The notes beneath the pieces were generated by a model that had not been told where the DNA came from, searched no databases, and worked only from the letters and a program-made list of their open reading frames with translations. Positions 4,287 to 56,200 of a stretch of DNA of 64,000 nt are shown here, one piece after another. Where the stretch lies: the NCBI GenBank assembly GCA_033439295.1, contig JAVTLE010000004.1:310012-374011 (forward strand). Reading direction: 5' to 3'. This DNA is from Deuterostichococcus epilithicus. Lineage: Eukaryota > Chlorophyta > Trebouxiophyceae > Prasiolales > Stichococcaceae. Position 1 is the first letter of the stretch. Each line of letters opens with the position of its first letter. A program made the translations under genes and the position numbers.

Positions 4287-7200
4287 ATGCAGCAGCCCGC
4301 TCAGCAGCTGCCGCCGCTCCAGCAGCGCAACGCAGCCCTGATTCAACAGCAAAGGATGCAGACCCAGCTGCTGCAGAAGCAACAGTATCAGGCGGTGAGT
4401 GCCCGACATGTGTTGCATCAGGTGACGAGGCTGGCTTGTCAGGAGGGCAGGTCGCATTGTCTGCATGATTCGGATTGTCCTGTACAAATGCTCGCCACTC
4501 ACTTGCAACTGACTCCCTCTCAAACATAATGCTGGCGGACAGGAACTCGCGCGGCTCATGGCGGCGCAGCACACGCCGGCGCTGGGCCGCCGCTTCGCAC
4601 TGCCAAAGCAGCGGGCCAAGAAGCAGGCGAAGCATCCCACTGCCCCAAAGCCCGCCACAGCTACAGGTGCGTCCGCATCGCGACCAGCAAGGCCGCAGAC
4701 ATGTGCGACCGGTTCAACTGTTTCGAGGCGCTCGCAGCCTCCACGCCCACAGCCCTTTAAAGCTCTAGAGCCGTACACATGGCTGACAAGCCCGCACCAT
4801 CATGGCGATAATCATACATACGTGTGACGCAAACTGTCGAAGCAGCACTGTTCCTCAAACTGCAAGAATAGTTTCTGCAGATGAGCACGGCGAGGCGGAG
4901 GGCGATGTCGGGGACGCCCTGGAGGAGCAGGGCTTCAGCGTCGTGTCCACCATCGAACTGGAGGCGCAAGGCCTGACGACGCACCCGGACAAGATCGCTG
5001 AGACGGCGTCGCTGGCGTCGGTGCACCCGCCGCAGCGGGCGCACGCGATGGCGCTGCCGTACGAGATCCTCGTCAGTGAGTTGCTTTGGCCCCTCGCCCG
5101 CTGGCTCAGGGTCCAGGGTTGCATGCTGCTGCAGAGGCAGGCACTGACGCAGGGGCGCGCCTGCCTCGTGCGGCTGCCGCGGGTGTGGCTGCCTCCTCAA
5201 CATGGGTCGTGGAGCTGGCAGGAAAGGAAGGTTGGCTGGGAGTCGTAAGGACGAAAGCGGCCCTGCTGGTCACAACCTGCTGCTCACAGGACCATCCTTT
5301 GCGCGCGGCGGCAGACTGATCACACCCCCTTTGTCCTCCGTTCTCGCAGACGGGATCAGCGCATTGCAGTACCAGTCGATCAGCCTGGCGTGCGCCGCGC
5401 ACGAGAAGTGGCTGCCTGACAAGTCGCGCGTCGGCTTCTTCCTGGGCGACGGTGAGATTTCTGCGTGTGTTGGACGCATGACACCCTTTGCTGAGGTGCC
5501 AGCGGGCGGCCGCCGGGCTGCTACCCACGGTGCTCGGACGGAGTCTTCGATAGCGCTCGCAGCTTCTGCCCGAGCCCCTGCTTTGCAAGGTGCATTCAGG
5601 ATGGCGGACTCAGCACGGCCGTGTTTGACGTGCGCTGCACACGCCGCTGCAGGGCCGGGCGTGGGCAAGGGGCGCCAGATCGCCGCGCTGATCTTCGAAA
5701 ACTTCTGCCGCGGCCGCACCAAGGTGCGCCGGCTGGTCCCGACCTCTGACAACTCCTGCCGCGCTGGGCACCAACAGCTCAGCAGCGCATCGGACACCAC
5801 TGCCTGAAAAACCTGTCGGATGCTGCATTGCTGCGCCGGCGCTGCTGCTCGCGACGCCCTCAGGCGGTGTGGTTCTGCGCGTCGGGCGACCAGGCCATGC
5901 ACACGCAGCGCCATATGAAGAACATCGGCTGCTGCCGGTCTGCTCATCCAGACTTCGCCGTCCCGCCTGAAGGTTTCAGCCCTCTGCTGCAGGCGGTGTG
6001 GTTCAGCGCGTCCGGCGACCTGGCCATGGATGCGCAGCGCGACTTCAAGGACATAGGCGCCCTCAAGTACGACCCAGTACGCATCCACAACCTGCGCAAG
6101 CTGAAAGTCCCCAAGTCGGGCAAGATCGCCGACGTGCCAGGCAAGTACACCGCCGCTGCTAATGGGGTCCTGTCCGCAGCCGCTGCCTGTGCTGCACGCC
6201 ACCGATGCTGCCCGGTGCAGCTTCCAGCATGATTGCACCGCTGCAGCCAGCAGTGCTGCTGAGCTCGGTGCCCTGACGGCGGCGGCAACCTGCACAAGGT
6301 GCTGGTGTCACGAGCATGACCTTGCTTCTGGGCTTAGCCACTTCCCTCCAAGTAGCCTCAAACTGCCTTCCAAGGCTGAGACCAGAACGTTGTGTGCCCC
6401 GCAGGCTGCGAGTGTGGCATCCTGTTTTCCACCTACGACCTGCTGATCTCCTCTACGCGGCCGACCAAGGAGCGAGCCGCGGCCATCAAAGCGGCCATGC
6501 TGCGGCAGCAGCAGGACGAGCAGCGGGGCTGCACGGCGGCGCCGGCCGCGGGCGACTCGCTGTGCGCGGGCGCCCTGGAGTTTGGTGAGAGCTTGTCCTC
6601 GGCCTCCTTCGTGCAGCGCCGAGAAGCACAAGCAGCAGGAGTAGATTTCTTTGAGCGGCGGACCGGGACACATGCTGCAATCAAGAAGTTTGCAAGGCTG
6701 CCTGGATGTGCAAACAAGGGGCCGACGGCTGCCACTGCAGCCAAGGTGCAGCGAAAGCAGATTCCCCTAAATGCCATGTGCGCATCAGCGTAGCCAGTGC
6801 CCGCATAATGGGGTCCGGCCGCAGGCAAGTAGCTCCTGGACTGCACAGATGGGTCCCCCTCGGCAATGCCCTGCAGATGGGCTTGACTCTTACTTTTGAG
6901 CCTACACCCTCTGCAGGCGAAAAGTCGCGGCTGCAGCAGATCGTGGACTGGTTTGGTGCCGACTACGATGGCGTCATCGTCTTTGACGAGGTGCGCACTT
7001 GCCACCTGTCTGCGCCCGCCCAGAGCATCTTCCGGCGCTGGCTGCGGTCCGTTCAATCCCGAGCTGGGTGCTGGACTTGCAGAGCCCTGCGCACCGCCCA
7101 GCCCAGTGCCCGCGGAATGCGCCGCAAAGAGGACACTACGCTCCCGGCTGTGAGCCAAGCTGCCGGCCGGGGTCGAGTGCACGCTTGTGCTCACTCGGCT

Positions 7201-10200
7201 GGCAATTCTGCTCCGCAGTGCCACCGGGCAAAGAACTGCGTGCCCAAGACCAAGGGCAACGGTGCGATGCCGCAGTCCGAGAGCAAGACGTCGCGGGTGC
7301 GCCCCTTTCCTTCCAATGAGCATGCCCGCATCCGGCGCAGTGCTGCCAGCCTGATCGTGCACCTGCTGCCGCTGGCGGCCTGTGCCACGACGCGCAGACT
7401 GTTTGTGACCAGCATGGTGACCTGCGCACATGGCTGCTGCTCCCGGGCGGGTTTGGCTGGAACGCCGCCGCGCTGCTGAGCAGCCGCCCATGCTCGCGCC
7501 TCCACAAACAGCCTCCCAGGACTCTGCCCCACCTCCAAACCCCACGCCCGCAGGCGGTCATCGAGCTGCAGCGGGTGCTGCCGAATGCGCGCGTGTTCTA
7601 CGTCTCTGCCACCGGCGCGACGGACCCCGAGAACCTGCTGTGAGCGCCGACTGGAACTTCGAATCTGCTTTTCGACCCTGCTGACCCGTGACGTGCCGCG
7701 GCTTGCTCGCCACATCCTCCGCAGGAGTCCGGCTGTTGCATGCTGGTCGTGCGCCGGGCTCTTGGGCCGCAGGCTCGGCAGTCGGCCAAGCTTGATCGGC
7801 GCATACCATGCGGCCTCTCAGCGTCGTCCCTGGCCGCTATGGCCAGTGGGCATCCAAAACCGGCTCCGTCTCCAAAGTTTCGTTATCAAGTTCTGTACTC
7901 GAGTCCCTTGAACCGCACACAGGTACATGACGCGGCTCGGGCTGTGGGGCGAGGGCACCGGCTTCCGCAACCGCCTCGACTTTGTCAAGCTGCTCAACGC
8001 GCGCGGCGTCGGCGCCATGGAGCTGGTGGCCATCGATCTGAAGCGCTCCGGCAAGTTCATCGCGCGCACGCTCAGCTACGAGGGCGTGGAGTTCAAACAG
8101 GTGGGTTTATGGTTTAGGGTTTAGAGTGGGATGGCCCCGAGGCCCGCTGCACTTTCTAGCCTGAAGAGCGTGTCAGTCGGTGGTCCTCAGGGAGCTTCAT
8201 CAAGATCATTGCGTGCGTGCGCAGCTGCAAGGCCGCGCCATCTAGGCAGGTGCTGCGCACCACACGGCCGCCCCGGGCCGCTCCCGAACCTGACTCAAGC
8301 GCAGGAGCGCGCGGCCATCCTGGCCGATTCCAGGGCCATGTGAGGTCCCGCGCAGCGGCGCTGCCGTCTGCTGCCTGACACCCGTCTGACGCCGTGCCTG
8401 CACCCCGCCTGCGAGCGCAGGAGCAGGTGGCGATCCCAGACGACTTCCGGGCGATGTACGACTCCGCGGCGGCGCTGTGGGCGGACCTGGACGTCGCCAT
8501 CCGCGGCGCCCGCGAAGACGGCGCCCTGGTGGGGTCCATCACCAGTGTTCCGGAACCGACATGCCGCTGCATCATGCAGCTGCGGGACCCCTTGCTAAGG
8601 CGCCGCTGCGGAGGGGAATCCTCGAGGCTCTTGAGGGCCCCAGCAGCAAGGCAGACGCCGCAGCTGGACCGTGGGCGCTGTTCCTGCACCTGCGTCTTGC
8701 CACATCTGCGCGGCGCAGTGGCGCCCGCGCCGCACCGCACTCCCAGCCGAGTCGCTGCGCCTTGCCCAACCGCAGGCAGGCGTGGAGTACATGAACGCGC
8801 GCAAGGCGCAGTTTGGCGCGCAGCTGCGCTTCTTCCGCCAGCTGGTCACAGCCGCCAAGGTGCCGCATGTCGCGAAGCTCGCGCAGGAGTACCTGGCGGC
8901 CGGCGACTGCGTGGTCATCGGCCTGCAGAGCACAGGTAGGGGGCATTGGATTTCAGATATATCATAGAATACATCTCAAGAGTAACTGGCGGCCAGCGAT
9001 TGCGTGGCACCGGCTTACAGAGCACAGGCGGGGCTGGCTGTTGGAAGATGCGTGTTTGGCGCTGGCAGTGTGTCGATTGCTGTTTGGTCTCCTAATGTAC
9101 AGGTGGCTGCTCACAAGCTATTGCATCACTCGCTGCAAAGTGACAGAGCTCTCCCTCCAGGTGCTAGCCAGCAGCGCCTTCCCACATCCACGAGAGCACG
9201 CCAGGGAGCGCACAACCTTTACATGGGCTGTGCGCTCCCATGCTTGCCATGCCACGGGCCAGTCAGATGCCCATTTGCGAGACTGGTGTTCGCGAACCCT
9301 AAACACTAAACCCTGCACAGGGGAGGCACGCACCGCAGCGATGGTGGCGGACGCCGGCGGCGAAGACGCCGACTTCGCCACCTTTGTCGAGCCCGCAGGT
9401 GATGGCTGTTCCGTCCCGCAGCAGCCAGCTGGCGATGCTTCAACGACGCAGCCCATGCTCGGCTCCAGTCGTGCACTCCTGCTTGTGTGTAGTCCTCCCT
9501 TGGCATGAAGCTTCTCTACTCGACTCGAGTCATACACTCTTGCATGTGTGTGGTCCTCCCTTGGCATGAAGCTCAGCAAAGGAAGCACGCCTCAGGTCGT
9601 CCAAGCGCCTCCTGCCATGTGCCGCCTCCAGCGTCTGCACGCAGCCATTGCGTTGCGGCAAGCAACGCCCCGAACCGCACACCGCAGCGGCCCCTGCCTG
9701 CAGCTGCTCCCGGTTGCGCCAACCTCCTCCGGCCTCACCGGCGAGCTGTGTGCGGTTGCAGGCCTCATCGTGCAAAAGCTCATTGAGGACCATCTGCCGA
9801 CCACGGCGCCGGAGCGCTCCAGCCTGCTGCGCCGCGCCAAGGAGATGAGGCTGCCGGAAAACCCGTTGGTGCGGCTTCTGATGCCTCTTGCCGCTGTTGG
9901 CACACTGCTCTAGTTGCTCGGCTCTGATCTGCTCCGGGTGCGGTCCCGCGCGACGGTCGGTCGCATGCGGACTCACAGCGGTGCGCACATCGCAGGTCCC
10001 AGCGACAAATTTGTACCTGAGGGTCTATGTGCTGTGTTCAGATTCTCATCCTGGCTCAGGGTCGAAATCCTGCCCGCAGGACCTGCTGATCGACATGTTT
10101 GGCGGTCCGGGCGAGGTGGCGGAGATGACTGGGCGCAAGATGCGCATGGTGCGGGAGGGCGGCTGCTTCCGCTTCCGCCCGCGCGCCGACGGCGATGTCC

Positions 10201-13200
10201 CCCTCGACTTAGTGCGTGCATGCAGTGCCTCATCCAGCTGAAACTCCCAACACTTGAGAAGCGCGCTTGCCAGGCGGACCGCAAGCCAGGCGGACCGCAA
10301 GCATGCGGCCATCGTGCCTGACGCCAACTTTGCCACACTGCTCTGGCCATGTTTCCAGGCTCCCAAGTCACAGCAAGGCTTGCACCGCAGCTGCAGGTCA
10401 GCACCGAGGTGGACAATGCAGAGTTCTCCTGCTGTGTCAGTGGCATGGGCCATTGCAAGTAGTGCCTGCATGTGCAGCAGAGAATTCGGTGCTTCCAGGC
10501 AGACCGCAAGCGTGAGACCATCACATGCAACACATGACAGTGCTGGAACTGTGCTGCGGGGAGTAGCAGGCTTGGGCCCGCCGCTGCAGGTCTACATCAA
10601 GCTGTCGGTGCCTTGCTGTCGCCGCAGGCAACCGTCGAGCAGAAGCCGTCCTTCTGGGCAGGCCTCAAGCGCCAGTGACGACACCCGGGCAGCTCAGAGT
10701 GTGTTTTGCTCAGTCTTTGGTAAGCGCCGCAGGTGAACATCGAGGAGAAGCGGTCCTTCCAGGCCGACCGCAAGCGCGTGGCCATCATCAGCGACGCCGC
10801 CAGCACCGGCATCAGCCTGCAGGCGGATCGCGCCGAGGCCAACCAGCGGCGCCGGGTGCACATCACCCTGGAACTGGCCTGGTCCGCCGACAAAACGGTG
10901 AACACTCCAATGTTGTGCGGCTCACTGTCCCCTGTCTGCATGCTTGAGTGAAGGGTTTTGAGCTTCCTTCTTGAGGGCGCCAGCGACGCTGCATGCACAG
11001 CATCCTGGACCTGGTCGGCCTGCCTACAATTTCCTGCGAAACCCGTCCTGGCTGACCGTGTTCTCCGGGGCAACGCTTTCAGTGGGCTGCCAGCAACGCC
11101 GTGTGGCTACAGCATACACCAGGGAGCTAGAGCATAAAAGTCAGCAAGCGGCGCGGGGTGCCACTGCTGGGCTCACCAGCATATCTGCACAATCGAGTAG
11201 CTCTGGACCTCCAACTGGCCAGCTTCTGCACCCAGATCCGAAATGTACAACTCGCAATGCGGCTGAGCCGTCATCGGCACACCTGCTTGGCGTCGGCTGG
11301 CGGCGCTGCGCCCACAGCACGCCTGCCACTCTGCAACCGCAGGTGCAGCAGCTGGGGCGCACCCACCGCAGCAACCAGCGGCAGCCGCCGCTGTACCTCA
11401 TTGTCGCATCCGACATCTGCGGCGAGCAGCGCTTCGCGAGCGCCGTCGCGCGCCGGCTGCAGCAGCTGGGCGCGCTCACGCACGGCGACCGCAACGCCGC
11501 CTCCGCCTCTGACGCGCTCGCCTCCTCCAACCTGCAGACCAAGTGAGTCTTATGCGGCGCCTTGTGTCCCTGCCGCCATGAGGCGATTGCAGCCGCCCTG
11601 TAGCGCCGCCCGCGCTGCGAGCGGCTGCTGCTGCGGCGCCCTGGACCTGCTGGCTCCGTGCTATTGAGGGCGCTGTCCACGCATTGCGACACACGGCTCC
11701 GACCCCTGACGAGACCGCTGTGCACCTCACTCAAGAGAAAGGGCAACGATTTGCTGCACGCACTGCGCACACGCTGATATGGAAGCAGTTGCGGAGCGTC
11801 CGACATCATGATGGGACGCGCTGCACAACGACACAATTCCGCTTTCTGATAAACCAGCCATAATGTATGAACAACCTCCAAGAAACGGATGTTTCTAGTG
11901 GGTGACCGAGCTTGTTTCCACGTTTAATGATGCAACCAATGCAGGCACAGCAATTGGGCGCTGTCGCAGATGTACAGGACGATCGTATGGCCTCGACTCC
12001 TGCTGCAACACACAAATCGAAACGTATATGATTTGCTGCTCTCCAGGTACGGCAAGCAGGCGCTGTCGCGCATGTACAAGACCATCATGGGGCGCGCGAG
12101 CGTGGACGACGGCGTGACCCCCGAGTTCATCACCGCGGAGCTGCAGGAGGCGGGTCATGTGCCGGGCACGCCCAACTGGCAGCGCGCCCGCTTCACCAAG
12201 TTCCAGGTGTGGGGCCGGCCTAAACCCTGGACCCTGTTCAGCTGGCAGCACCGCCAGCGTGTGATGTGTCCTTCATCAGTGCAACCCTGCCGTCGAAGTT
12301 GATGTGGAATCGCTGCTGGCGGCGCATTTCGCTGGCCACGCTGCATCGTGTGCATCGTGAACCGCTCGCCGCAGCCCCTGCGACCCGTCCAGTTGCCATC
12401 AGCTCTTCACGCTGCCCTGGGCGAGGGTCGCAAGTGCACGCAATCGACAGCAGCCGAGGGGGAATGGATCCGCCCTGCAGGAGTTCATGCACCTGGCGGG
12501 CGAGGCGCTTTCCTCGGTGGGCGTGCTCTCCTACGACGCCGGCCACGGCAACGAGCTGCGCCACCTGGAAAACAGCGGCCAGACCGACCAGGCCAGTCGC
12601 TACAAGTGCCCAGCTGGGTACACTATAAATTATCTCGTTCAAAGCGTTCTGACTCTGCCACTATTCTATCGGTGGGCAGCTCCGCCACCTGGTAGGTCTG
12701 GAGGACCTTGCCCCGCGTCACAGTGCTCCAAGCGGCAGACAGCGGCCTCTGAGAATGCTGGCCGCCTGGCGAGGGATAGCCCCTACTCAGAATGTGAGCC
12801 TTTCCCTTTCGAGCCTCTTCCTTTCGTGCTGTAAGCAGGAAAAGAAGAAGGCGGATGCCAAAGGCGACTGGGGCGGCATCAACAAGTTCCTCAACCGGCT
12901 GCTGGCGGTGCAAGTGGCGAAGCAGGCCAAGATCATGGCCTACTTCATGGCCCTGCTGGTGAGACCTCGGGATCTGCTGTTGCGCCACGGTTTTCCTTGC
13001 CGGCATCCCTCTGGCTTGCATGCCTGACCAGTTGATGGCTGTCAGCCCGCTAGTGCAGACGCGCTTTGGGCGGGCTGCAGTGCTGTGCTGTTGCGCAGTC
13101 AGCAGTGCAGCAGCGCCCAGGCAACGCAATGAGCATGGGCACCTGCCACTGGAACACATGGCCCAAACAAAACCTTTGTTGGCAAGCATTTGAGGACAGG

Positions 13201-15930
13201 TGCGGCTGACTTGATCGCACATGGTCGTGGATACCAACCCTAAACCCTACACTCAAGCCTAAAACCCCGTGATGCAGGAGCACACGGTGCAGCAGGCCAA
13301 GCGGCTGGGCAAGTACAACGAGTACGCCATCGTCATGCCCGCCGGCGACATCCGCTTCAAGGACCGCCAGGTGCGCCGGTGCTTGCAGGGGAATCGCAAT
13401 CGCATGCAACCCCCCTGGTCTACCATCAGTGTGCTGCTTACTGGCCGGAGGGCTGGTGTGTGCGGAGTCTCCCGCATGGCGCCGAGCTTCGAGCACGCGT
13501 CCAGCAGGTTCGAAGACCCACCGAATGCACAAGGCTGAAGGTTGTTTGGGTCCCGCAGGCGGGTTGCGTGTGGCACACCGCACGGCCTCCCCTCAAGGTC
13601 TCGAGCACCTAGCCTCACCGAAACCTACGACCCCTGGCCTCCACATTCCCTGCTCGCACAGATCATTTACATGGACATGGACACGGGCGAGCGGACGTAC
13701 CACAACGAGTACCTCATCGACCGTGGCGCCGTCTGGGACACCGTGGAGGCCCGCCTGGCGGAGGAGGTGCCGCTCATTGTGCTCCTTGAATTTTGTGCTA
13801 TCTACACCACTCCATGTACGTGTGCTGCATGGCACCTGGCCAGGCGCACGACCTGGGACACCAGTCGACGCCCACCTGGCCGGGGAGTGCCCACTGCTGC
13901 GGCACTTGTCCACCGTGCCGCCCTCTGAACCAAACCGGTGCTGGCAGTCACTGCCGTGTGGGGCCCCGCAGAAGCGGGAGGACCCAGAGACCTACAGCGG
14001 CTTCTACTACACCGAGAATGCCCAGACAGGGTTCATCTACCCCATCCTGGTGAGGAGCAGCCCTGTCGTGCCAGACCCACAGTGCTTGCTTGCCTGTCGT
14101 GAGGGCAGACATCATGGGCTGCCCTGAGGGTGCCGGCAGGCGCTCAGGCGTGATCCCGCACGCCTCGATGCACCTCGACTAGCGTAGGGTCGTGCAGGCG
14201 GCGCTGACGCCTCAGGCAGCGACGCTCCTGTTTCCGATCACCAGGGAGCAGGGGCTGACAGGCATCCGACCTGAAGAGGCTCCCAAGCCAGATTGTCTTT
14301 CAGAGCAGGAATCTCCCAGCATGACAGCTGTTGACCTGACACAGGACAACCGACAGAGACAACACCAAGCACGTTCCAACGGTGTGGATCAGACGCTTTG
14401 CGATTGAGTGCGCAGGCCCTGGAGCGGGACGAACGGGGGCGCAAGCTGCAGGCGGTGCACCGCAGGAAGCGGAAGGGGCACGGCGACCGGCGGCCGCCCA
14501 ACTACTTTCGCATCGTGCGGCACGTGACGGGCTTCAGCTCCAACGACATGTCCTTCGACGTGCGTGCCGCCCGCTGCCATGACCCTGTGTGTCTGTCACC
14601 TGCATCTGTGCGGGCATCTGCAGGGTATAGGGTTCGCAGATACACTTGTGTTCAGTCAGTCTGAGTGCGAAGGCTTGGGTCCACAGCAGCGGTGCTGTCA
14701 CGCGCCTTTTACCACAGCTGTTACAGAGTCAGATCTGCCGGGCAGCCCCACATGCATCGGCATTCTCATGGCCTGAGCAATCGTCGTTTTGTCCGAATTT
14801 CCCGCAGCAAATGCGCGAGAAGGGGTACCGAGAGGTGCAGCCTGCGCGCTACACCTGGATCAGGAGTATCTGGGAGAAGCAGTACACCGAGAAGAAGACG
14901 TGCGCGATCTGCCGCAAACTGAAGTCGCAGAACCCTTCACCCTCGTTGCCGTGCATGCTTGCGGCCGGCTTCCGTGCAGCTGCTGTGGACTGCTGTGGAC
15001 TGCTGCATGTGCGCCTTGAGAGCTCTGATCTGGGCGCCACTGCACTGGCTTAACATGGCAGAGCGAGCAAACATGTGTGTGTGACGGGGCTGATCCGTTT
15101 CTTTTACCGCTGCGCAGCGAGCGGACGGCACCAATGCACCTCATCACGGGTGCGGTGCTGCCGCTGCTGCCCACCCTGGACAAAAGGTGCGGAGAAAAAC
15201 CTCCATATGACCGGCGCCCGGAGCTGCTGTCGGCGACCGTGCCTATTCATGATCATTGGGTCATGCCTGCACATGGTGTGCGAGCAATTCGTTTCTCGGC
15301 GACTACGGCAAGCGCATAGTTTCTGCTGTGTGTGAGCCAGCAACCACAGCCTGACCTGCGCCCAGAACGACATGCTGCGACCTGTGGCAGCATCATGCTG
15401 CGGAAGCCAGATTTTTAGGCAGTTTCCCTCCGGCGCTGCGCAGGGGCGGCAAGCTGCAGGTGTTCCGCGTGGAGCCCAAGGACGACAGCCCCTCGCAGAT
15501 AGGTGCGCATCCCCAGCTGTGGTCAGGCCCCGTCAGCGTTACTCGGCAATGCTTCACCTCACCGTGATTTGCTGTGGGGAGGACTGGAGGAGCGCTCTTG
15601 CAGCGGGCCGTGCACATCCCGATCCGCACGCTGCTGCCCGAGCACGCAGGGCTGCATCAGGTGACAGTCCGCCCGCTCCCTGACGTGTCGACGCCCGGCT
15701 GCGCAGGCATCATGATCGAGCAGGGCAACTTGAAGCCGGTGCTGGATGCCGTGGCGGCGCTGCAGCCGGAGCGGCCCTGGGAGGGCGCGCCCGCGGCGGG
15801 CGATGCGGCCCTAAACTCTGAAACCGCACAGCTGACGGGCACGGCAGCCGCGGAGGACGCGGCCTTCCGGGCGGCGGGCGCCGCCAACGCCGCCGCGCTG
15901 CGGGTGGGGCCTCTGATGCGGGGCGCATAG
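4287..15930 (+). CDS. FGT1: Strawberry notch / FORGETTER1-type helicase-like protein
   Basis: About 29 exons, roughly 1,200 residues. A Gln-rich N terminus ([15 protein letters not shown]) precedes the sno core. Helicase half: ISALQYQSI (5350-5451), Walker A-like [11 protein letters not shown] (5653-5723), [19 protein letters not shown] (5993-6140), [10 protein letters not shown] (6405-6584), VIVFDE plus CH across an intron (6917-6990, 7219-7296), YVSATGA (7554-7639), [12 protein letters not shown] (7923-8100). C-terminal half: [14 protein letters not shown] (8776-8935, 9321-9398), [13 protein letters not shown] (10080-10211), [14 protein letters not shown] (10733-10897), [11 protein letters not shown] (11343-11542). 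Later exons are 12047-12206, 12481 to about 12590, 12839-12958, 13278-13370, 13662-13766, 13972-14049, 14416-14559, 14808 to about 14930, 15118-15186, 15444-15502 and 15707-15930. Known: family members are nuclear chromatin-associated cofactors, and the Arabidopsis member acts in heat-stress memory with remodelers. The ends of two exons (12590 and 14930) are not fixed. Confidence 0.93.
5864..5929 (+). repeat. Exon copy inside an intron of the helicase gene
   Basis: These 66 bases repeat the start of the downstream exon at 5993-6058, with 12 differences by my count and the same CAG acceptor context. The copy stays open and in the same frame ([19 protein letters not shown] against [19 protein letters not shown]). 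The downstream copy matches the sno family better. It is either a decaying duplicate or an alternative exon. Confidence 0.8.
8111..8124 (+). repeat. Telomere-like motif just after a splice donor
   Basis: GGTTTAGGGTTTAG, about two units of TTTAGGG, lies 10 bases inside the intron that begins at 8101. Confidence 0.7.
8302..8344 (+). repeat. Decayed exon copy with a stop codon
   Basis: Repeats the start of the exon at 8421 ([12 protein letters not shown] then TGA, against [12 protein letters not shown]). The copy lies 119 bases upstream and also follows a CGCAG acceptor-like sequence. The stop codon argues against use as an alternative exon. Confidence 0.7.
8982..9028 (+). repeat. Decayed copy of the preceding exon end
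   Basis: Repeats 8889-8936, the last part of the exon encoding [10 protein letters not shown] plus its splice junction, at close to 90% identity with one single-base indel. The donor GTAGG of the original has become CGGGG in the copy. Confidence 0.8.
9470..9577 (+). repeat. Imperfect tandem duplication of about 58-60 bases in an intron
   Basis: Two adjacent copies share TGTGTGTAGTCCTCCCTTGG / TGTGTGTGGTCCTCCCTTGG and the following GCATGAAGCT. They lie inside the intron between the exons ending at 9398 and starting at 9762. I see no coding role. Confidence 0.75.
10258..10680 (+). repeat. Three decayed partial copies of the next exon within one intron
   Basis: Segments near 10258-10335, 10488-10530 and 10628-10680 each resemble the start of the exon at 10733 ([16 protein letters not shown]). 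The middle copy is closest: CTTCCAGGCAGACCGCAAGC against CTTCCAGGCCGACCGCAAGC. The first copy contains a further internal repeat of AGGCGGACCGCAAGC. Confidence 0.7.
11956..11995 (+). repeat. Decayed exon copy upstream of the exon at 12047
   Basis: GGCGCTGTCGCAGATGTACA against GGCGCTGTCGCGCATGTACA in the functional exon ([11 protein letters not shown]). The copy lies about 100 bases upstream inside the intron and diverges at its 3' end. Confidence 0.7.
13236..13248 (+). repeat. Telomere-like motif near a splice acceptor
   Basis: AACCCTAAACCCT, the complement of TTTAGGG repeats, lies about 30 bases before the acceptor at 13276-13277. A degenerate CCTAAAACCCC follows. Confidence 0.65.
13850..13899 (+). 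repeat. Decayed copy of the preceding exon end
   Basis: Resembles 13723-13772 (the exon reading [13 protein letters not shown] and its donor): CTGGGACACCAGTCGACGCC against CTGGGACACCGTGGAGGCCC, then CACCTGGCCGGGGAGTGCC. The original donor GTGCCG corresponds to GTGCCC in the copy. Confidence 0.65.
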
Positions 15931-16134
15931 CTCGAGCTTGAGTCTTAAACTTTGTTTGAGGGGCCAGCAGCAGACAGTGGGGCACCAACAGGGGCTTCCT
16001 GCCGAGCGCCGGCCAGTGGGCGGGTGTCCGGCTGGAGCGTGGACGAGGGGAAGCCAGCTGGTGCAGCCCGCCCGAGACCTCCGTACAGCGCTTCGGCTCA
16101 GGTTCTTTCGCAGCCTCATCATCCGACTGGAGGG
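15931..16134 (+). promoter_or_regulatory. Short spacer between two co-directional genes
   Basis: Only 204 bases lie between the helicase stop (TAG 15928-15930) and the ATG of the PHD gene (16135). It must hold the terminator of one gene and the promoter and 5' UTR of the next, unless the two are co-transcribed or joined by a splice I have missed. The single frame is interrupted by stops. Confidence 0.5.
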
Positions 16135-29475: not shown

Positions 29476-32400
29476 ATGTCCCGAGCTGTTTCTCGCTCAT
29501 GCCACAGGATCCTGGGCCAGGCCACCAACAGCAGCCAGGCGGGCGCGCCAGTTGTGGCGGCGGCAGGACTCCACGCCTGGGCTGCCGCCGGCGCAGGCGG
29601 CGCCTTGCGGCAGCCGACCGCGCATGATGGTCCCCTGCCCAGTAGCCTGCCGCGGGCGGCATGGCAGCCAGCGGGCGCACGGGCCATCAGCGCCTCATCC
29701 TGTGAGCCATCCCCGCCGCCACTCGCCCCTCTGCCTACGAGTAGTTGGTTGATGGCGCGTGTGGCACAGTAGCTCGCTACCTGCCCAAGTGGATCTGGGA
29801 TCAAGCATGGAGCGGTCCCTGCCAGTTCAGGCAGATCTCAGCTCTCGGCAGCAGAGGTGTTCGCGGGCCCGGCAGCGGGGCGATTCCCGCCGCGCAGCAG
29901 GACAAGCAGCAACGATGCCAAAGCTGACTGCAGCTCTCACGTCCCGCTGCTGTGGCGCCCGCAGCCCGCGGCGCGGACGATTATTACAAGGTGCTGGGCG
30001 TCGAGCGGGGCGCGAGTGATGCAGAGGTGAAGAAGGCGTTTTACCAGAAGGCGAAGCAGTACCACCCCGACTCTAACAAGGTGATATTCATTGAAATGAG
30101 GTGTTCAGTCAAGGCAGGCAATGCAGGCTGCACAGCACTCTGCAGGCGCGTCTGTTTCCTCACGGCAGCATCTGGGGCGTCGCTGCGGAATCCATGCCAC
30201 ATCCTGGCAGCTCACGCACGCAGCCGGAAAAGGTTGCGCCGCGGCGAGGAGTCCAGCGTGCTGTGCCCTGCCCTCCTCCCGCGCAGAAGCCTTGGGGACG
30301 GTCAACAACTCCGACGCGCAGCCCGCTCCATGCGCAAGACTTCTCGCCATGCAGTCCCGCATAGACGCCTCATAGGGGCTGCCGCACCCGTGTGCGCAGG
30401 AGCCCGGGGCTAAGGAGAAGTATCACGAGGCGCAGCGCGCCTACGAGACGCTGTCCGACAAGGAGAAGCGGTCCATGTACGACCAGGTGCGGGCGGGGCA
30501 CGCTGGCTTGTGTGTCGAGACTGGTTTGTTGGTTGGGACTCGTGGTTCAGGCTTGTGGACGAGTCTGGGTCGGCAGCGTCCTGGATGCGGGCGGCGCCTG
30601 CGACTGACACCGCCTCCCCCACATGTGCATGGCGTGGCAGGGCGTGGCAGGGCTGCGTGCCACAGCCGTGTGCGAGCGCGCGGCCTGCGCAAGACCGTGG
30701 CGGGCAAGGGCGCGTGGCGGCCGCTGTCCGAAACGGCTGTGCCGCCTCATTGTGGGGAAGCTGGGGCGACAGCAGCCGCTCCCGTCGCAAGGGCGGGTTC
30801 TCACTGCGGGGCACGGCAACGCGCTGTGTGGCAGCTCGGAAACCCCAGCAGGCGACACAGCTGGCGGACATGCCGTTGACGGCGCCCTTCTCGCCCTGGC
30901 CCGCAGGTGGGCCGCGAGAACTTCGAGCGCATGGAGCGGGGCGAGGGCGGCCCCGGCGGCGGCGGCTTTGGCGGCGGCAGCCCCTTTGGCGGCTTTGGCG
31001 GCAGCCCCTGGGGAGGCGGCGAGCAGGGCGTGCACTGGGACTTTGCCGGCGCCGGGCAGAGCATGAGCATGGAGGACATTATGGAGCAGCTGTTCAACGC
31101 CGGTGCTGCCGGCGGCGGCCGCGGCGGGGTGAGTCCCACCTCCCCCCTCGGGGCCGGAGGAAACCATGCAACAGTCATGGGTCACCGCAACCTGGGCACT
31201 CTTGGCCGATTAGGGCGCCGGTGCAGCCGGCGGTGCTGAGCTCTGCACGGAGGCAGACTTCACTGCTTCAGCTCGAGTTCCGGTGGAATGGAGCGCAGCG
31301 GCAGCGCACGCGCAGCATTCGTGCACGCCATCAGCGCATTCATGCGGGAACATCACGGAGTGAACATGGATAGATTGAACAAATTTTCAAGCGGAGCTGG
31401 GCTTTGATGAGGCGAACCGCATCTATTCTGACTCCAAGCTCAAACTTGAACGTGTGGGTCTCGTGCACTGCAGCGGCGGCGCACGCGCAGCATCCGCGCA
31501 CAGGTGGTGCTGTCCTTCGAGGAGGCGGCGCGCGGCGCAAAGCGCACCATCCGCGTCTCGCAGGGCTTGCCGTCGCCCAAGAACGTGGAGGTGGACATCC
31601 CCGCAGGTGCGGGAACGGAAGTGAAAGAAGAGAAGAACCAGGCCCCGCAGCGCTCTGGTTGTGTTGCGGCACCGCTATTAGGGTGCCGCCCAGCGCCGTG
31701 CCTTCTGCCTGAGGTCTCGAGGCTGCTCTACGACGCAGATCCAGGCTGTGTCAGCCATCAGCTTCGTGAGGTCGTGCTCCATCACCACGCCACAACCATA
31801 GGTGTTCTCCCCCTCAGGCATCGACTGCGGCACGACGCTACCCGCCAGCAAGGTGGCGGGAGCGGCGGTGACCGCGTCTAGATATGCTGTCGGCCCCTGC
31901 CTTTTGCAGGAATCGACCACGGGTGCTGTCCGGCCAGTGGGGTTGCGGAGGCCACCAAAGACCGCCGGGGGCCGCACACCAGAAGTCATGTCACTTCCAC
32001 TTCAACCCTTCCGACACGCCTGCCCCCCGCCCACAGGCATCGACAGCGGCATGACGCTGTCAGCCGGCGAGGTGGCGGAGGCGACGAAGGACCGCCCGGG
32101 GGCGGAGCTGTTTGTGGAGGTCGTCGTGCAGCCGCACCCCGCCTTCGAGCGCGTCGGCAACGACGTGCTGGTGGCCGCGACGCTGGACATGCCCGACGCG
32201 GCGCTCGGCACCGAGATCACGTGCGTGCTTCGCCAAAACTTTTGTGGCAGTCTTTACATGCGCGCCGGGGACTTGGGGTTCAGGACCGTGTGCTGTGCTG
32301 CCTTTGCTGTGCGTGCCGTCCAGCGGCCCAGCTGGCGCAAGGTAGCCCCATGCTGGCAGCAAGGCTGCAGCGGGGAGCTCGCATGCCGTGACCCCCTGCG

Positions 32401-46352: not shown

Positions 46353-46740
46353 ACGCCCAGCTCTCTGCACATCGTAGCGCTGGCGAAAGATATGCGCGCT
46401 TGCCGTGTAAACGGTACGGAATTGTCGAATCACACGAAGTGATCACTGGTGACGCAATGCCAGTTGGCAGAACCCTAAAAAGGAATCTCCTTTTTGAATA
46501 GCTCTCACATGTCAGACAGTCGGACAGGATGGGATTCGTCCGTCCACGCAGATGAGGCATGAGGCGGATGTTGCACATGATAGGTAGCGTCATCGTCAAA
46601 ACCTTGTTGGATCCTACACTTTGGATATCTTCACATTTCACAGGATTTCCAGAGTTCCTGGCGCTGGGCATCGGACTGCCCGTCGGTGTGACGATGGCAC
46701 TCAGGCCATCTGGTGACATTTGCCAGCAGTGTGGCGTCGA
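46353..46740 (-). promoter_or_regulatory. Upstream region of channel copy 2 with a block conserved in copy 3
   Basis: The block at 46449-46480 (TGACGCAATGCCAGTTGGCA, then AACCCTAAAA) recurs upstream of copy 3 at 52599-52634 (TGACGTAATGCCAGTTGGCA, then AAACCCTAGC). It combines a bZIP-like TGACG core with a telo-box-like AACCCTA. It may be a regulatory element or simply duplicated sequence not yet diverged. The left part near 46640-46740 is the 3' flank of copy 3. Confidence 0.5.
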
Positions 46741-49700
46741 TCATGTCGCGCAGACGATGATGAGGATCAGGATGTACGTGACGACCAGGACTATGAGCGA
46801 GTAGCGGTCCACCTTGCCGGACAACCATTCTGCAAGGCAGCAAACCATGTTTCGTCCAGCAGCCGCGAATAGGTCTGCCGCAGGCAAACAGTCATCTTGG
46901 ATGCCAGAGATGCGTCTCTGGACTGGGCTTTGAAGGACCGCTCATGCACAACCCGATCAGATTGGCCTGTGCGACAAGCGGGAAATGGTCCTGTCGGACG
47001 ACTTGCTGTGATAGGCCACGTCCAGGCAAATTTGTTACCTGCATAATCCGAGTCGTGCTTCAGCGGCGATAGGGCGTCTCTCCAGCGTTTGCCGCCCAGC
47101 CACTTGAGCATGGCAGGCTTGCCCCCCGGGCTGCTGTGCTCGCTATCTGCTGGGTGTGCATCGCCATGCCCATTTGACTGCACAGCCATGCCCTGCCAGG
47201 CAGGATGAGCAGAAACTGTTGGCAATCTGCTGGGTGTGCATCGCCATGCCCATTTGACTGCACAGCCATGCCCTGCCAGGCAGGATGAGCAGAAACTGTT
47301 GGCAATCTGCTGGGTGTGAATTGCCATGCCCATTTGACTGCACAGCCGTGCCCTGCCAGGCAGGATGAGCAGAAACTGTTGGCAGGCAGGTGGTGCAACG
47401 CACACAGTGGCTGTCGACCCTGGAAAAATCAGGATCTGCCACAGAGAGCAAGGGGGAGAGCACCGCAACCCTTCCCAGACCCCCCCCTCGTGCTCTCCTT
47501 TTATGCGCTGCTTCTGCTGACATCATGCCGGACCGCACATGGCCAACTGCGTCGGCAATGCAAACCCCACGAAATGGTCGGAACTCGGCTCACAGGACGG
47601 TTTGCACAGCACCACGGGCAACTTGACAGAAGCCGAAATCCCACCGTGATGTGCGCCAAGCTGGGCGTGTCCGACTCCTCAATGTCGCCCGCGGACGGCG
47701 GCTGTGTCACACAACTTCTCCTTGGCGTCATGTTCGACGCCTCAGCCAGGTCGTTCGCCGTTATCTCGCCCTTTATGTACTGCTTGTATGCCCGTCGCCA
47801 CGCCTGTTGGATACATGATGCCCGTCACAGAGGAATCGACATGTTCGGAGGGTTCTGAGTGGAGGCCACAGGACCGGTCAGCGCTGTGCGGGGCTGGCTG
47901 CGGGCATCCCTCGCAGCTAACGGGCGCCAGGTCCAAGCGGCGCCTTCGAGCCTGTGCCATGCGCAGAGCGCCATGAGAAAGAGTTCCATCGCGGGGAAGC
48001 CTGCACATTGTGCCGCTGGGCCTGCGTGCCGCCGCCCGAAGTCCAAGTCCACTGTCAGGACATTGTGTGTCGTGCGCGCACCCGTATGCGGGTGTGCCGC
48101 TGGTGAAAAGTGCCCAGGTAGTACACAATCCACGATTCCAGCGCCATCGCCACGAACAGGGCTGCGGGGCAGCACACGGGGAGCGTCATTCCCCCGACCA
48201 TGCACGAGCCCGACAGGTTGTCATAGCTGCAAGAGCCCGCCAGCCGGAGCCAAGCTACATCAACGCTAGCGGGTCACAGTGAGCCGCAGACCAAGGAGCC
48301 TGGGGCCAGAGCATGGCCCAGCGTATTGTTCAGGTTGGTTCAGTCGCAGGGTTTAGAGTTTCGAGGCCACGCACCATAGCCCGCCAGCACCAAGGCTTGC
48401 GTCTTCAGCACATAGCTGCAAGTGATGCAGTCGGGTTTGAGTGAGTTCTGGCGGTGACAAGGCGTCAGATGCATGAAACATCGCAGAGCAGCTCCTCAAG
48501 CTCCTCTGAATCATGCATCTGCAACACACGCAGAAGGCCGCCGGCACACCTGCTGTTCGGCAGGTTTGTGCTGATCACAAACTGCAGCGCGGTAAGCGCC
48601 AGGAAGAGCGTTACCAGCAGGCCTGCGGCAGGGTGGGCAGACAGGGCGCTGCTGTCAATTGCCAGATTTCGCAGTCCAGCTGTGGATGCAACCAGGTCGC
48701 TCAGAGCAGCTGTGAATGGAATTGTGTGCAAAATTTGTAGTCAACACCGCAATGCTGCAGAGATGATGACATGCTGACTCAGCAGCGTATATATGACACG
48801 GGTGAAGCCCTCACCTAGCCGCTTCTCCTGCAACGGGGAAGCAGGGAGGGCTTGAGGAACAGCGAGTATGTTATGCAGCCATCCGGCTGACACAGCACTG
48901 GCCCGGAGGGATTACACAAGTAACAAGCCGCCACTGCCAAGGCTCCAATGTAACTGCGGGCACGGCATCGGCAATATCCTAGCAACTGGCGCACCATTTC
49001 CTCAACGTCTAGCAGGAACACGAAAAAGCCGAGCACGGTCGACAGGATGATCGGCACCAGGTTGTTGACCACAAAAAAGGACGAGTAGCGCGATACCTGC
49101 ACCGCCGACACAACCACATCACTTGACATCACTCAAAGAGCAGGCGGCAGCAGTTGCTGCTGCCCACAGCCATCTTTCAGTGCCCGCGTGATATCAGTGA
49201 AATTCGATGGGGTGTGGGGCAGCAGGGAGTCGACCAGCGGGGCCGCCATTCAAGCCGGTCGGAACCTGACCTGAATGACGACAAGCACCGAGTTGCCGGG
49301 GTTTAGCCTCCTCTGGAAGACTTGCTGCAGACCGGTCACGTAGCGCTCGTTGTTCGCATCCGTGGCTGTGGTGAACAGCGGCACCTGAACAGCGCAACAG
49401 CTTCGAGGCATCGATGCTGATTCGAAAGCATCGGTGAGGCACACCAGGTGACGATTCTCCGAAGGAAGACAACCCCTATGTACGGCGCAGCATGCGGCTG
49501 AACCTCCGGACACTAAAGCATTCTTCTGCGGTTGGGAGAGCCGCCTCACCGGGTCATTGACGGCCGGCGGTTCCAGGTTACCCTGCACGCCCACACAGCA
49601 GTCTCTGAGCAGTCTTCACCTGATGACTTGCTTGCAACAGGCTGCAAATGGTAGCCACCGTCTTCACAGAGTTCTTGTGACAGCCTGTGCGAACTCTTTG

Positions 49701-52515: not shown

Positions 52516-53273
52516 ACGCCTAGCTCTCTGCGACTCATTGGTTTGGCGCTTTGGCGAAAGATGTGCGCGCGTGCTGTGTTACAAGACAGTGATTGCTCGT
52601 GACGTAATGCCAGTTGGCAGACCAAAAACCCTAGCAAGGATTCTCATGTGTCGGACTGCATGAATCATGCTGGGCCTTGTGCATCGCGATTCTGCGCTGC
52701 TGCGTAATGTTGAGGCCCCACGGGGAGCACCCACCGCTGTTGACCTGCTTGCTTGTTTGATAGTCGAGCAATTTTGACACGCACCGACTGGTGCTCTTCA
52801 GCTTTCGAGACTGAAATCGATCGCGGCAGCCCTCATGGTGGCAATTCTCGTAGCAGTTGCCGCGGCCGTGGCAGCGTCTGCCACTGCCGCTGTGACTGTT
52901 GTGGCATCGCATTTGCGACAGCGAAACACCGCAGCGGGCATCGACGGCGTCCAGGTGGACACTCTGCACCTGTCTTCCACCTCGGCAACGTGATGTTATC
53001 ACGTGCCATGCACACCCTCCACTTTGCAGCGGCTCCGCTGCGGGCTGACCCGCCGAGGATCGCCGCAGGGAGTGGCGGACGAAGAGTCGGAGGGCCTCGT
53101 GGCCGGCCATCCCTCCAAAAGCCGGCCAGATGAGGGGTGCGCACCTTGCAGCGGCTTCAATCTGCGTCACATAGCAGGTCATTGGTCACTTGCACGGTGG
53201 TCCGCCTTCATCAGACGCGATTCTCATCTCTGAGAGCTTATCCAATTTCTCTTGTCGTGACTCCTGTACCGCA
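52516..53273. promoter_or_regulatory. Divergent region between channel copy 3 and the TPR gene
   Basis: Holds the promoter of copy 3 (conserved block at 52599-52634) and the 5' part of the TPR gene. An ATG at 52835 opens an Ala/Val-rich hydrophobic frame (MVAILVAVAAAVAASATAAV, stop near 52993) that could be an alternative first exon of the TPR gene, or a decayed copy of its membrane-anchor exon at 53274. Confidence 0.45.
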
Positions 53274-56200
53274 GGGTGGCCATCGGGCCGCTGGTCATGG
53301 CGGCAGCTCTTGCGGTGCTGCTCGCGGTCGCCGCGTTCGTTGGCGTCACCGCCTTCTGGCTGCAAGGTGCACCCCCCAAAACGCACCGCATACCGCGCCT
53401 CTACTACGCCTGCTTGCTTTGCGCGCTGCTTGGCTGGCACGCCACCCCTCTGTGCCTGCCTGCAGGCCGGCCCTGCGGCAGCTGCATCCCTGAGGTTTAG
53501 ATGCTTCCGAGTTCGAGGTGCCTTGCGTCCGCAGGGCGCTCCAGCGGCCTACCAGGGCCGGGGCTGTGTGTGCGTGCGCCTAGCCTCGGGGCGCGCCTGA
53601 AGCATGCCGCCGGCCTGGGCTACACGCACCCCATCCATACCAGCTCCTGGAAGGCGCAGCGCTTGTTTGACCTGGTGCGCCGCCGGCCTGGCCCGACAGG
53701 CCCAGATAACATCAAGCTGTTCCGATCGGCCGGGTGATTCCCGGCCCTGCAACCGCATGGCTGCGCTAATGCGGGCCGCTGCCCATAAACATGTTGCGCA
53801 TCTCGGTTTCACTGATGCTTCCACCGCTCCACTGCGGGAGGCGGCAGCTGCCCTCGCCGTTGCGGCGCTGCAGCCTGTCCGTGCTGTGCTGCCGGCCGCC
53901 CCAGCGCTGCTGTTGGTTGTGCATGCCGCCGCCCGCCCCATGTTTTCCTCGTGGACGGCCAGCCCCTCTTCGAGTACCACTGCCACGCCAGTTTCCGTCG
54001 CCGGCTCCTGTTGGAGACATGCAGCTTGGACCACGGTTGGAGGGGCTGTGCCTGGCCCCTTTGTCGGTGTTACCAACGCCATGGTTTTTTCTGTGAGCAC
54101 ACCCTGTGGCATGCCCCACTGCACTGCAGGGCCTGATGGAGGCGTGGAACTTCAACCAGCTGGAGGCGCACAATGCCTTCTCGGCGGCAGCCGCGCAGGA
54201 CCCGGCCTGCTCCCGCTGCTGGTGGGGCGTCGCCTATGCGCTGGGACCGGGCGCCAACAGGCGCGCCGCCGCGGCGTCGTTCCCGAACGACTCCGCACAC
54301 AGCTCGCTCCAGGAGCTCCAGGCTGGGGAAGCATGATTGCTGCACTGGCAGCGTGCGTACCACACCCCTGCTGTCCGGGGACTGAGAAGGCTGAGGTCTG
54401 GCAGGCGCTCGGTGCGATGCAGGAGTCCGCTCAGCCTGACTGGCAGCAAGGGGTGTGGCAGGTTTTGAGCACCAGGAGCGGCTCGATGCTGGCACAGGGC
54501 TGTGACGGAGGAGCCTCAGATTGAGAAGCAGCAAGGGGTGCAGCAGAGCAGTTCGAGCACCAGGAGCGGCTCGATGCTGGCGCAGGGCCGTGACGCAGGA
54601 GCCGCAGCCCTACCCGTCCTTCTCGCCGGTGGACTTTCCGGCGGCGCGCGCGGCGGCGCACCAGGCTGCCCGGCTCGCCGAGGCGGCACTCAAGAAGCAG
54701 CCGGGCAATGAGGTGCACGTGCTGAGGGACAAAAAGAAAAGGGCTGCCAGCGCCTGCCCTGCGGCACAGACTGCGAACAGTCCACTGCCAACAGCTGCCT
54801 GCACAGCTTGGGCCCTGTGCCCCCCTCCCCCNGCGGGACTTGCGGAAAGCTGCCGTGCGGAGCGCCCATCTGCCTGAGTGCGCCGGCGCACGGCGAACCG
54901 CGCTGCTGGCTCGCACTGAAGGTCGGCTGCTGTGCAGCAGCGGCTTGCGACCCACGATCACACGTGCGCATCTTCACTGCGATTCCACCGCTGGCACCTG
55001 CTCTTGCGCAGCTGGCGCAGAGGGACGCGGCCTGGGGCCGCGCGGTCGCCGCGCGCTTCCGGCCGGGCTCCGACCAGCAGCCGGCGCGCGACGCCGCTGA
55101 GCTGGAGTACGCACAGCAAGTGGCTGTCATCGGTGCGACAAGTCGTTTACCACCGCCAGCGCGGGCGCCCCCATGTCATGCTGTCATGCTTTCTGCCATT
55201 CGCTGCTATTCTCCGCCTTTTGCTGGGGAAAATCACGCACGGGACCGCCGGCGCCGACTGAACCAAATCGTCTGGCTGATGGCGAGACTGCCATGAAGGA
55301 TCGAGCCAGTCGCACCGCTGCGCCTGGTGCAGCCTCGAGATGAGCGGGTTCGAGGCTGACGACGCTGACGGTTGCGCTGCACAGGGAAGCAGTATCAGGA
55401 CGCGGATGCGTTTGCTATCGCGGCGGAGACACACATGAACCTGTCGCCATGGGATTACTATCTGCCGGACAAGGTGCATTCGACTTTCAAGCACTGCGCT
55501 CCTCTGCCGCGGGCAGCTTGCTTGTTCAGCGGCTGGCAGCCTGCTAACACGAGGCTGGGATGTGGCAAACATGCTTAACGACATCTCACCATCTCTGTAC
55601 GAGTCCGCCCTGGATGAGATAGGCTCGCGGACTGACGCCCGGCGCTGCGCATGCATCAAAACCAGAAAGTCGTCGCTGCAGCTGTCCGGATTACTTGCTC
55701 CAACGCCCCAGGCCCTGCTTGCCCCACCGTTTCCGCGCAGAACCACACGCTACGGGAGTCGGCGGTGGCGGCGGAGGCGCTGGTCCACAGGGCGCTGGCG
55801 CTGCGGCCGGCGCACCCATTTGCGGCACACCTGCTCGTCCACATCGCCGAGGCCGGCAGCCCGCTGCGGTGCGGCGCCTACATTTGATACAAAAACGTAT
55901 CAGTCTTCTCTCGGATATGCCGCCGCTGCTCTGCCCCATCCGGTCCATGGGACCCTGCTGCAGTTCCGAACGATGATTAATTCCGATGCTGCTGCACGCC
56001 TCGCCCTACAGCTGTCTTTGATGCCGCGACCTCCGCGCTGCCGCGCCTACGGCAGCGCTGACTCCACCTGAGGCGGTGACAAGATGCACTGACGCCCCTC
56101 AGTGTCCGACATGTCGCCGCTCGTCCCCCCGCCGCCACACCGCCCGGTGGTGTCTGAGCTCTCCAGCTCTCTGAACCCCAGCCTCTCCACCCGCGTAGGG

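What the first reader, a model, noticed from the sequence alone, without database searches (positions are those of the whole stretch)
5864..54599. Introns across the window repeatedly contain decayed copies of adjacent exons
I find independent cases in at least four genes: helicase (5864, 8302, 8982, 10258-10680, 11956, 13850), DnaJ (31295, 31812), TPR (54468) and Apollo (63738). Copies include the splice-site context and show all stages of decay, from about 90% identity to barely recognisable. This recurrence suggests a lineage-wide process of local tandem duplication that creates or enlarges introns, not an accident in one gene.
Basis: partly seen in the sequence, partly recalled or inferred. 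Interest (0 to 1): 0.85.

Follow-up and report, generated by a model that had tools for sequence, protein, structure and literature searches.

The report
Introns grown by nearby exon duplications
In this algal-looking genome some introns carry worn-out copies of the edge of the exon next to them, and such introns are longer by about one copied unit, which points to introns growing through small local DNA duplications that splicing hides.

Summary
A gene model self-trained on the window plus 17 sampled 10-kb stretches of the same 46.8-Mb genome, then applied to 7 more, gave 545 testable introns. At alignment score >=34, 32 of 545 contain a copy of their own flanking exon, against 0.44 for shuffled exons, 0.47 for other exons of the same gene (537 introns) and 0 reverse-complement. 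In the 7 held-out stretches: 4 of 134 against 0.10 (score >=32). Copies lie near the exon edge at a tightly distributed offset (median 118 bp, IQR 103-137, 45 pairs). Mismatches hit all codon positions, somewhat more the third, so the copies decay as non-coding DNA.

Introns with a copy have a median of 385 bp; minus the offset, 240, against 242 without. That supports enlargement of existing introns; I found no clear intron creation.

Best explanation: short tandem duplications across splice sites, tolerated because splicing removes the extra unit. Two tensions remain: high-scoring copies are too rare, and most copies lack the duplicated intron flank, compared with a constant-rate process. 'Lineage-wide' was not testable: no related genome was available.

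The parts
5861..5929 (+). decayed copy of the head of helicase exon 5993-6188, including its CAG acceptor, offset 129
   Evidence: 83% over 69 bp; score 78
8298..8363 (+). copy of the head of helicase exon 8421-8528, offset 116; intron flank weakly similar
   Evidence: 74% over 66 bp; flank p 0.04
8977..9028 (+). copy of the tail of helicase exon 8776-8935; donor GT reads GC in the copy; offset 93
   Evidence: 85% over 53 bp; view
10256..10313 (+). short pieces of a multi-copy series of the head of helicase exon 10733-10897, offsets 473-489
10487..10523 (+). another piece of the same series, offset 264
   Evidence: 86% over 37 bp
10620..10672 (+). another copy of the same exon head, offset 105
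   Evidence: 79% over 53 bp
   Evidence: 78%, score 38
11942..11984 (+). copy of the head of helicase exon 12047-12206, offset 102
   Evidence: 79% over 43 bp
13853..13891 (+). copy of the tail of helicase exon 13662-13766, offset 120
   Evidence: 87%, score 37
31295..31326 (+). copy of the head of a DnaJ exon, offset 175; no flank similarity (p 0.35)
   Evidence: 91% over 32 bp
31811..31867 (+). copy of DnaJ exon sequence at 32030, offset 219; called exon by the gene model, probably a decayed copy
   Evidence: 81% over 57 bp; exon-exon class
31925..31974 (+). second copy of the same DnaJ exon head, offset 131
   Evidence: 78% over 50 bp
54430..54519 (+). tandem duplication across a TPR-gene acceptor with the intron flank still visible, unit 85-88 bp
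   Evidence: 82% over 93 bp; flank score 27.75 vs control mean -1.2
63738..63775 (+). weak copy of the tail of the Apollo-like exon 63572-63670, offset 105
   Evidence: 79% over 38 bp, 33.7 bits, E 0.28
47142..47384 (.). three 80-bp units in an intron (by my model) of one channel-like paralog; a single unit at 41157-41216 in the tandem paralog
   Evidence: the model merges tandem genes here, so the stretch could be gene-end sequence

Best explanation
Short tandem duplications, mostly about 85-150 bp, have recurrently struck genes in this genome. When a duplication straddles a splice site (intron end plus exon edge), the transcript still carries a complete splice site next to the intact exon. 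Splicing to that site removes the extra unit, the protein is unchanged, and the allele can persist. The redundant exon edge then decays as intron sequence, and the intron is longer by one unit. Shown: copies beside their own exon far above controls, direct orientation, exon-edge position, preferred offset, non-coding decay, and a length excess equal to the offset. Inferred: that the DNA event is a tandem duplication (the unit is seen whole in only a few cases), that it arises from break or nick repair with end fill-in, that splicing ignores the copy, and that most visible events are old.
For: Excess: 32 of 545 introns vs 0.44 / 0.47 / 0 for shuffled / far / reverse-complement exons at score >=34; held-out stretches 4 of 134 vs 0.10 at >=32.

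Locality: 53 same-strand repeats within 800 bp at >=36 bits and 0 opposite-strand, window plus 17 stretches; a whole-genome search with intron 5724-5992 returned only itself and its neighbouring exon, with the tool's caveat that common words are skipped.

Offset: 30 of 38 copies at 85-150 bp, against 16% of detected copies if unit lengths 51-400 were equally likely.

Whole units: intron flank repeated with the exon edge in 54430 and L022:3858 by test, and by eye in L003:7118 and L018:612.

Decay: mismatches at codon positions 1/2/3 are 13/17/21%, 39 pairs including L011.

Length: 385 minus offset = 240 vs 242.

Polarised case: three 80-bp units in one paralog, one in the other.

A tandem model with copy age 0.25-0.4 substitutions per site gives 0.12 at score >=60 (observed 5 of 38) and, for copies at >=48, flank similarity 0.33 (observed 2 of 13, P 0.14) (the 2 of 13 is my count).
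Against: Intron flank is similar (p<=0.05) in only 5 of 36 tested copies, where about 2 would be expected by chance; constant-rate neutral tandem duplication predicts 72-75%. An earlier variant of the test gave 3 of 24. Loss of the flank does not simply follow age: five copies with identity >=0.9 over 21-32 bases (window 31295, L012:1856, L014:1430, L018:2379 twice) show none, though such short islands inflate identity.

High-scoring copies are scarce: 5 of 38 at >=60, about 54% predicted at constant rate. The model needs a higher past rate, and even the 0.25-0.4 cohort mispredicts identity >=0.9 (8 of 38 observed, 0.08 predicted) and aligned length >=60 (7 of 38, 0.30 predicted).

Intron-internal duplications are fewer (3 clusters with offset 55-180 against 24 exon-intron clusters) than my hand estimate of near parity at a steady rate.

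The acceptor/donor asymmetry 29:10 (p 0.003) is not predicted. Intron boundaries have no RNA support.
Confidence: 0.58

Rival explanations
1. Exon-limited templated insertion: a break inside the intron is repaired by copying 25-75 bases of the nearby exon edge (polymerase-theta-like or template switching), so the intron flank was never duplicated.
For: Flank similarity in only 5 of 36 copies; over 22 acceptor-side copies similarity drops to 0.30 (control 0.26) at 11-15 bases into the intron; some high-identity short copies lack the flank.
Against: Four well-preserved cases carry the intron flank. No opposite-strand copies, which repair of this kind usually also gives (recalled). Nothing in the model fixes the left edge at the acceptor. 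At constant rate it also predicts too many high-scoring copies (0.53 at >=60 vs 5 of 38).
Confidence: 0.2
2. Copies are kept similar to their exon by gene conversion or weak constraint, for example as decoy or regulated splice sites, so they outlive their flanks.
For: Exon-intron pairs outnumber intron-intron pairs and flanks are lost.
Against: Mismatches hit codon positions 1 and 2 (13%, 17%) not far below 3 (21%). AG is kept in 16 of 23 and GT in 4 of 9 copies, which I judge to be what decay at this identity gives; offset is not biased to multiples of three (17/19/9, p 0.15).
Confidence: 0.1
3. Intron creation by tandem duplication of exonic AGGT segments (Rogers model).
For: Related mechanism; direct copies of exon sequence; four pairs with intron length within 35 bp of the offset.
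Against: Copy boundaries mostly lie well inside the introns and intron length exceeds the offset by a median of 240 bp.
Confidence: 0.05
4. Artefact: gene-model error, low complexity or assembly error produces the similarity.
For: Gene models are unsupervised; some decayed copies were called exons (DnaJ, L003).
Against: Annotation-free self-BLAST shows the same excess and strand bias; shuffled, far-exon and reverse-complement controls are near zero.
Confidence: 0.02

Closest known systems
Potato RdRp intron gain by tandem duplication across an intron-exon boundary (PMC4974935; passages read)
   Same: [quoted passage not shown]
   Different: There a new intron appeared in the duplicated region; here existing introns seem to be lengthened, in many genes, with a preferred unit and mostly worn copies.
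Tandem-duplication origin of new intron positions in Drosophila (PMC2891723; passages read)
   Same: Tandem duplication of exonic sequence followed by intronization of one copy.
   Different: [quoted passage not shown] here introns exceed the unit by about one normal intron.
Tandem exon duplication and mutually exclusive exons (PMC9013439; passages read)
   Same: Search of gene sequence for homology to exons of the same gene; unannotated duplicates found.
   Different: That work concerns exons as units, with RNA support for some; here mostly exon edges, decaying, without RNA evidence.
Small tandem duplications from fill-in of break ends by CST/Pol alpha-primase (PMC8355091; passages read), and the rice patch-mediated break repair it cites (title seen in its reference list only; paper not held)
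   Same: A general source of short tandem duplications at break ends.
   Different: [quoted passage not shown] here the offset centres on 118 bp, and no repair gene was tested.
Introners (PMC9860276; listing and start of abstract only)
   Same: Genome-wide effect on intron content.
   Different: Introners are copies of an element inserted in many genes; here each copy resembles its own neighbouring exon.

Membership tests
Tandem duplication spanning a splice site | copy in direct orientation near its source | tested here: met
   53 same-strand vs 0 opposite-strand within 800 bp at >=36 bits, window plus 17 stretches
Tandem duplication spanning a splice site | unit includes the intron flank as well as the exon edge | tested here: inconclusive
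   seen in four cases (two by test; two by eye); 5 of 36 tests overall; compatible with an old cohort, not with a constant rate
Tandem duplication spanning a splice site | intron lengthened by one unit | tested here: met
   37 introns, median 385 minus offset = 240, vs 242 for 494 introns with score <28 (introns scoring 28-31 left out)
AGGT intron creation (Rogers) | intron length equals the unit; copies at the intron ends | tested here: not met
   four of 38 pairs within 35 bp, none equal
Introner elements | families of similar introns in unrelated genes | tested here: not met
   no between-locus match >=50 bits in window plus 17 stretches; one intron searched genome-wide returned only itself and its neighbour exon
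Mutually exclusive tandem exons | whole exon with both splice sites and an open, conserved frame | tested here: not met
   copies mostly cover one exon edge (three short exons of 36-45 bp are covered nearly whole); mismatches on all codon positions; GT kept in 4 of 9
Mutually exclusive tandem exons | expression of the copy | not testable with these tools
   no RNA data
Retroposed exon fragments | copy spans an exon-exon junction | not tested
   indirect only: intron bases -10 to -6 match 0.50 vs 0.25 control

The most novel reading that the evidence does not exclude
A lineage-specific repair or replication process copies exon edges into the neighbouring intron in steps of about 118 bp, was far more active in the past, and may copy from the splice junction into the exon without duplicating the intron flank. 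It would be a directional, quantised route of intron growth that needs no transposon.
Probability: 0.2. Interest if true: 0.78.

Novelty: new variant of a known kind. Interest (0 to 1): 0.56.

Why it matters
How introns grow without transposons is poorly known. Here about 7% of introns (38 of 545 at score >=32, one coding-repeat case included) still show the donor exon beside the copy. Source, step size and decay can therefore be measured in one genome, and a single related genome would turn it into a dated rate. It also warns gene predictors: mine took some copies for exons (DnaJ, L003).

Tried and rejected
Simple tandem duplication looked refuted when most copies lacked intron-flank similarity. 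My first power estimate (0.73-1.0) ignored detection bias and longer indels. Simulations conditioned on detection, first with assumed indel rates, then with rates set near those of the channel-like paralogs (intron p-distance 0.222, 0.09 gap openings per substitution, mean length 6.3), show that a constant rate is rejected but an old cohort is compatible.

Wholly exonic duplication with intronization was rejected: the spacer between copy and exon does not resemble the exon interior (0 of 36 at p<=0.05).

Frame-preserving selection was not seen: offset modulo 3 is 17/19/9 (p 0.15).

A link with interstitial telomere motifs was tested: 4 of 42 copy-bearing introns (score >=30) carry the motif vs 19 of 508 others, Fisher p 0.09, not established.

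Species identification failed: five tries of the 18S family search gave no answer. Literature: the listings showed no paper whose title or abstract start describes genome-wide exon-edge copies in introns of an alga; only those listings and the passages named were seen.

On recheck I corrected the wording that only the youngest copies show the whole unit, since some high-identity short copies do not; I lowered the main explanation from 0.62 to 0.58 and raised the exon-limited rival from 0.17 to 0.2 and the creation rival from 0.04 to 0.05.
Full report
Setting. The window is G000:C4:310012-374011 of a 46.8-Mb genome in 21 contigs, GC 62.6%. Intron-rich genes and TTTAGGG motifs suggest a green alga; that is my reading from recall, and the species was not identified. 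The tool holds no relatives of it.

Gene models. I trained a hidden-Markov gene finder, without external data, on the window and 17 stretches of 10 kb. It settled on donor AG|GTGCG-like and acceptor GCAG|G-like signals. It gave a 42-exon Strawberry-notch-type helicase (Pfam AAA_34 E 1.6e-102 and Helicase_C_4 E 3.2e-89 on its first 1062 residues), a DnaJ protein, a TPR-like protein (TPR_19 below its cut-off), a lactamase-fold Apollo-like protein and a channel-like gene (Neur_chan_memb just above its cut-off, LBD below). Seven further stretches were annotated with the frozen model as held-out data. In all: 49 gene models, 550 introns (545 testable) in 304 kb.

Is it there, and more than chance? 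Without any annotation, same-strand repeats within 800 bp number 53 at >=36 bits and opposite-strand ones none, in the window plus 17 stretches. On all 304 kb there are 65 same-strand against 3 inverted within 900 bp at >=34 bits. With annotation, each intron was aligned to its own two flanking exons. At score >=30, 43 of 545 introns hit (shuffled 1.76, far exons of the same gene 1.27 over 537 introns, reverse-complement 4). At >=34, 32 of 545 (0.44, 0.47, 0). Held-out: 4 of 134 at >=32 (shuffled 0.10, far 0.27, reverse-complement 0). One pair at >=32, in L011, is a coding repeat array; it was dropped from the statistics, leaving 38 pairs in 37 introns, but it is still in the counts. L002, offset 27, is a short tandem repeat and was kept. 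Copies are unevenly spread among genes (permutation p 0.0046): helicase 7 of 41 introns, L018 7 of 21, L012 5 of 13, the channel-like gene 0 of 50.

Anatomy. Copies of a downstream exon begin near its acceptor (from 12 bases before it, the limit of the search, to 34 after), and copies of an upstream exon end near its donor (9 after to 31 before). Averaged over 22 acceptor-side copies, identity is 0.84 at exon positions 5-9 and falls to background near position 50. In the intron it is 0.50 at -10 to -6 (control 0.25), 0.30 at -15 to -11 (0.26) and 0.31-0.36 at -25 to -16 (0.24-0.25). The offset has median 118 and IQR 103-137 (45 pairs at score >=30). Simulated detection does not favour that range: if unit lengths 51-400 were equally likely, 16% of detected copies would fall at 85-150, against 30 of 38 observed. 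Mismatches by codon position are 69/519, 87/518 and 109/519, so the copies do not look conserved as coding sequence; 5 of 38 have an in-frame stop within the aligned part.

Enlargement, not creation. Introns with a copy (37) have median length 385 bp, those with score <28 (494) 242. Subtracting the offset gives 240 (p 0.90 against 242), whereas the raw lengths differ (p 7e-6). If duplication had created the intron, its length would equal the offset and copies would touch the intron ends. Four of 38 pairs come within 35 bp of that, two of them with doubtful small exons in my model; none is equal. A polarised case is in the window: a tandem gene duplication (41057-46489 against 47039-52645) carries one 80-bp unit on one side and three nearly identical units on the other. 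My model places the array in an intron, but it merges the tandem genes there.

What kind of event? In 54430 and L022:3858 (by test), and by eye in L003:7118 and L018:612, intron flank and exon edge are repeated together, as a tandem duplication must. Most others do not show it: flank similarity at p<=0.05 in 5 of 36, and the spacer is not exon-like (0 of 36). I simulated tandem duplications, decayed them with indels set near those of the paralogs, and detected them with the same scan. A constant rate predicts flank similarity in 72-75% of copies and score >=60 in 54%; observed 5 of 36 and 5 of 38. An old cohort (0.25-0.4 substitutions per site) predicts 0.12 at >=60 and, for copies at score >=48, flank similarity 0.33 (observed 2 of 13, P 0.14); a 0.2-0.35 cohort predicts 0.50 (P 0.011). 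The 0.25-0.4 cohort still mispredicts identity >=0.9 (8 of 38 observed, 0.08 predicted) and aligned length >=60 (7 of 38, 0.30 predicted). So plain tandem duplication survives only with a higher past rate. Copying of exon edges alone is not excluded.

Exon-touching excess. With offset 55-180 there are 24 exon-intron clusters and 3 intron-intron clusters. From breakpoint space and simulated detection windows (0.18 against 0.25) I estimate by hand near parity for a steady uniform process. An old cohort removes most of this gap, because intron-intron pairs decay on both sides (detection 0.05 or less at t 0.25-0.3 in that simulation).

Mechanism. Inferred chain: nick pair or break, fill-in and joining, tandem duplication of about 120 bp (a known kind of repair outcome; passages of PMC8355091); splicing at the site next to the intact exon; decay of the redundant copy. 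Why the unit centres on 118 bp, and why acceptor-side copies outnumber donor-side ones 29 to 10, is unexplained.

Known precedents: one potato gene with a duplication across an intron-exon boundary, Drosophila tandem-duplication introns, tandem exon duplications in animals. The listings I saw showed no report of this at genome scale in an alga.

Limits: no RNA, no relative, 0.65% of the genome sampled (304 kb of 46.8 Mb), unsupervised gene models, ages in relative units only.

Noticed in passing
window 8112, 9295, 13236, 19745, 58355; L016:1780; L017:705; L012:4697: Plant-type telomere motif CCCTAAA/TTTAGGG sits mainly in introns: 25 of 30 occurrences in 304 kb, introns being 53% of the bases (reversed-motif control 6 of 12), in both orientations relative to the gene (13 and 12). 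Looks like short interstitial telomeric insertions, possibly break-repair scars.
   Followed up: partly
window 34356-53037, minus strand: Tandem genes resembling pentameric ligand-gated (Cys-loop) ion channels, merged into one by my gene model; weak Pfam scores. Two of them form a 5.5-kb tandem duplication with intron p-distance 0.222.
   Followed up: partly
25 sampled units: Copies of the downstream exon head outnumber copies of the upstream exon tail 29 to 10 at score >=32 (binomial p 0.003, one coding-repeat case included).
   Followed up: partly
L018:372-5006: A stretch with repeated duplications across exons and introns (offsets 109, 145, 147, 261), the densest cluster sampled.
   Followed up: partly
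window 9458-9573: Intron-internal 61-bp tandem duplication, 87% identical.
   Followed up: no
L019:620-752 vs 958: Direct repeat outside my gene models, 84%, offset 338, in an AT-richer stretch (GC 0.545).
   Followed up: no
L011:6413-7212: Tandem array of 96-102-bp units that looks protein-coding, partly called intron by the gene model.
   Followed up: no
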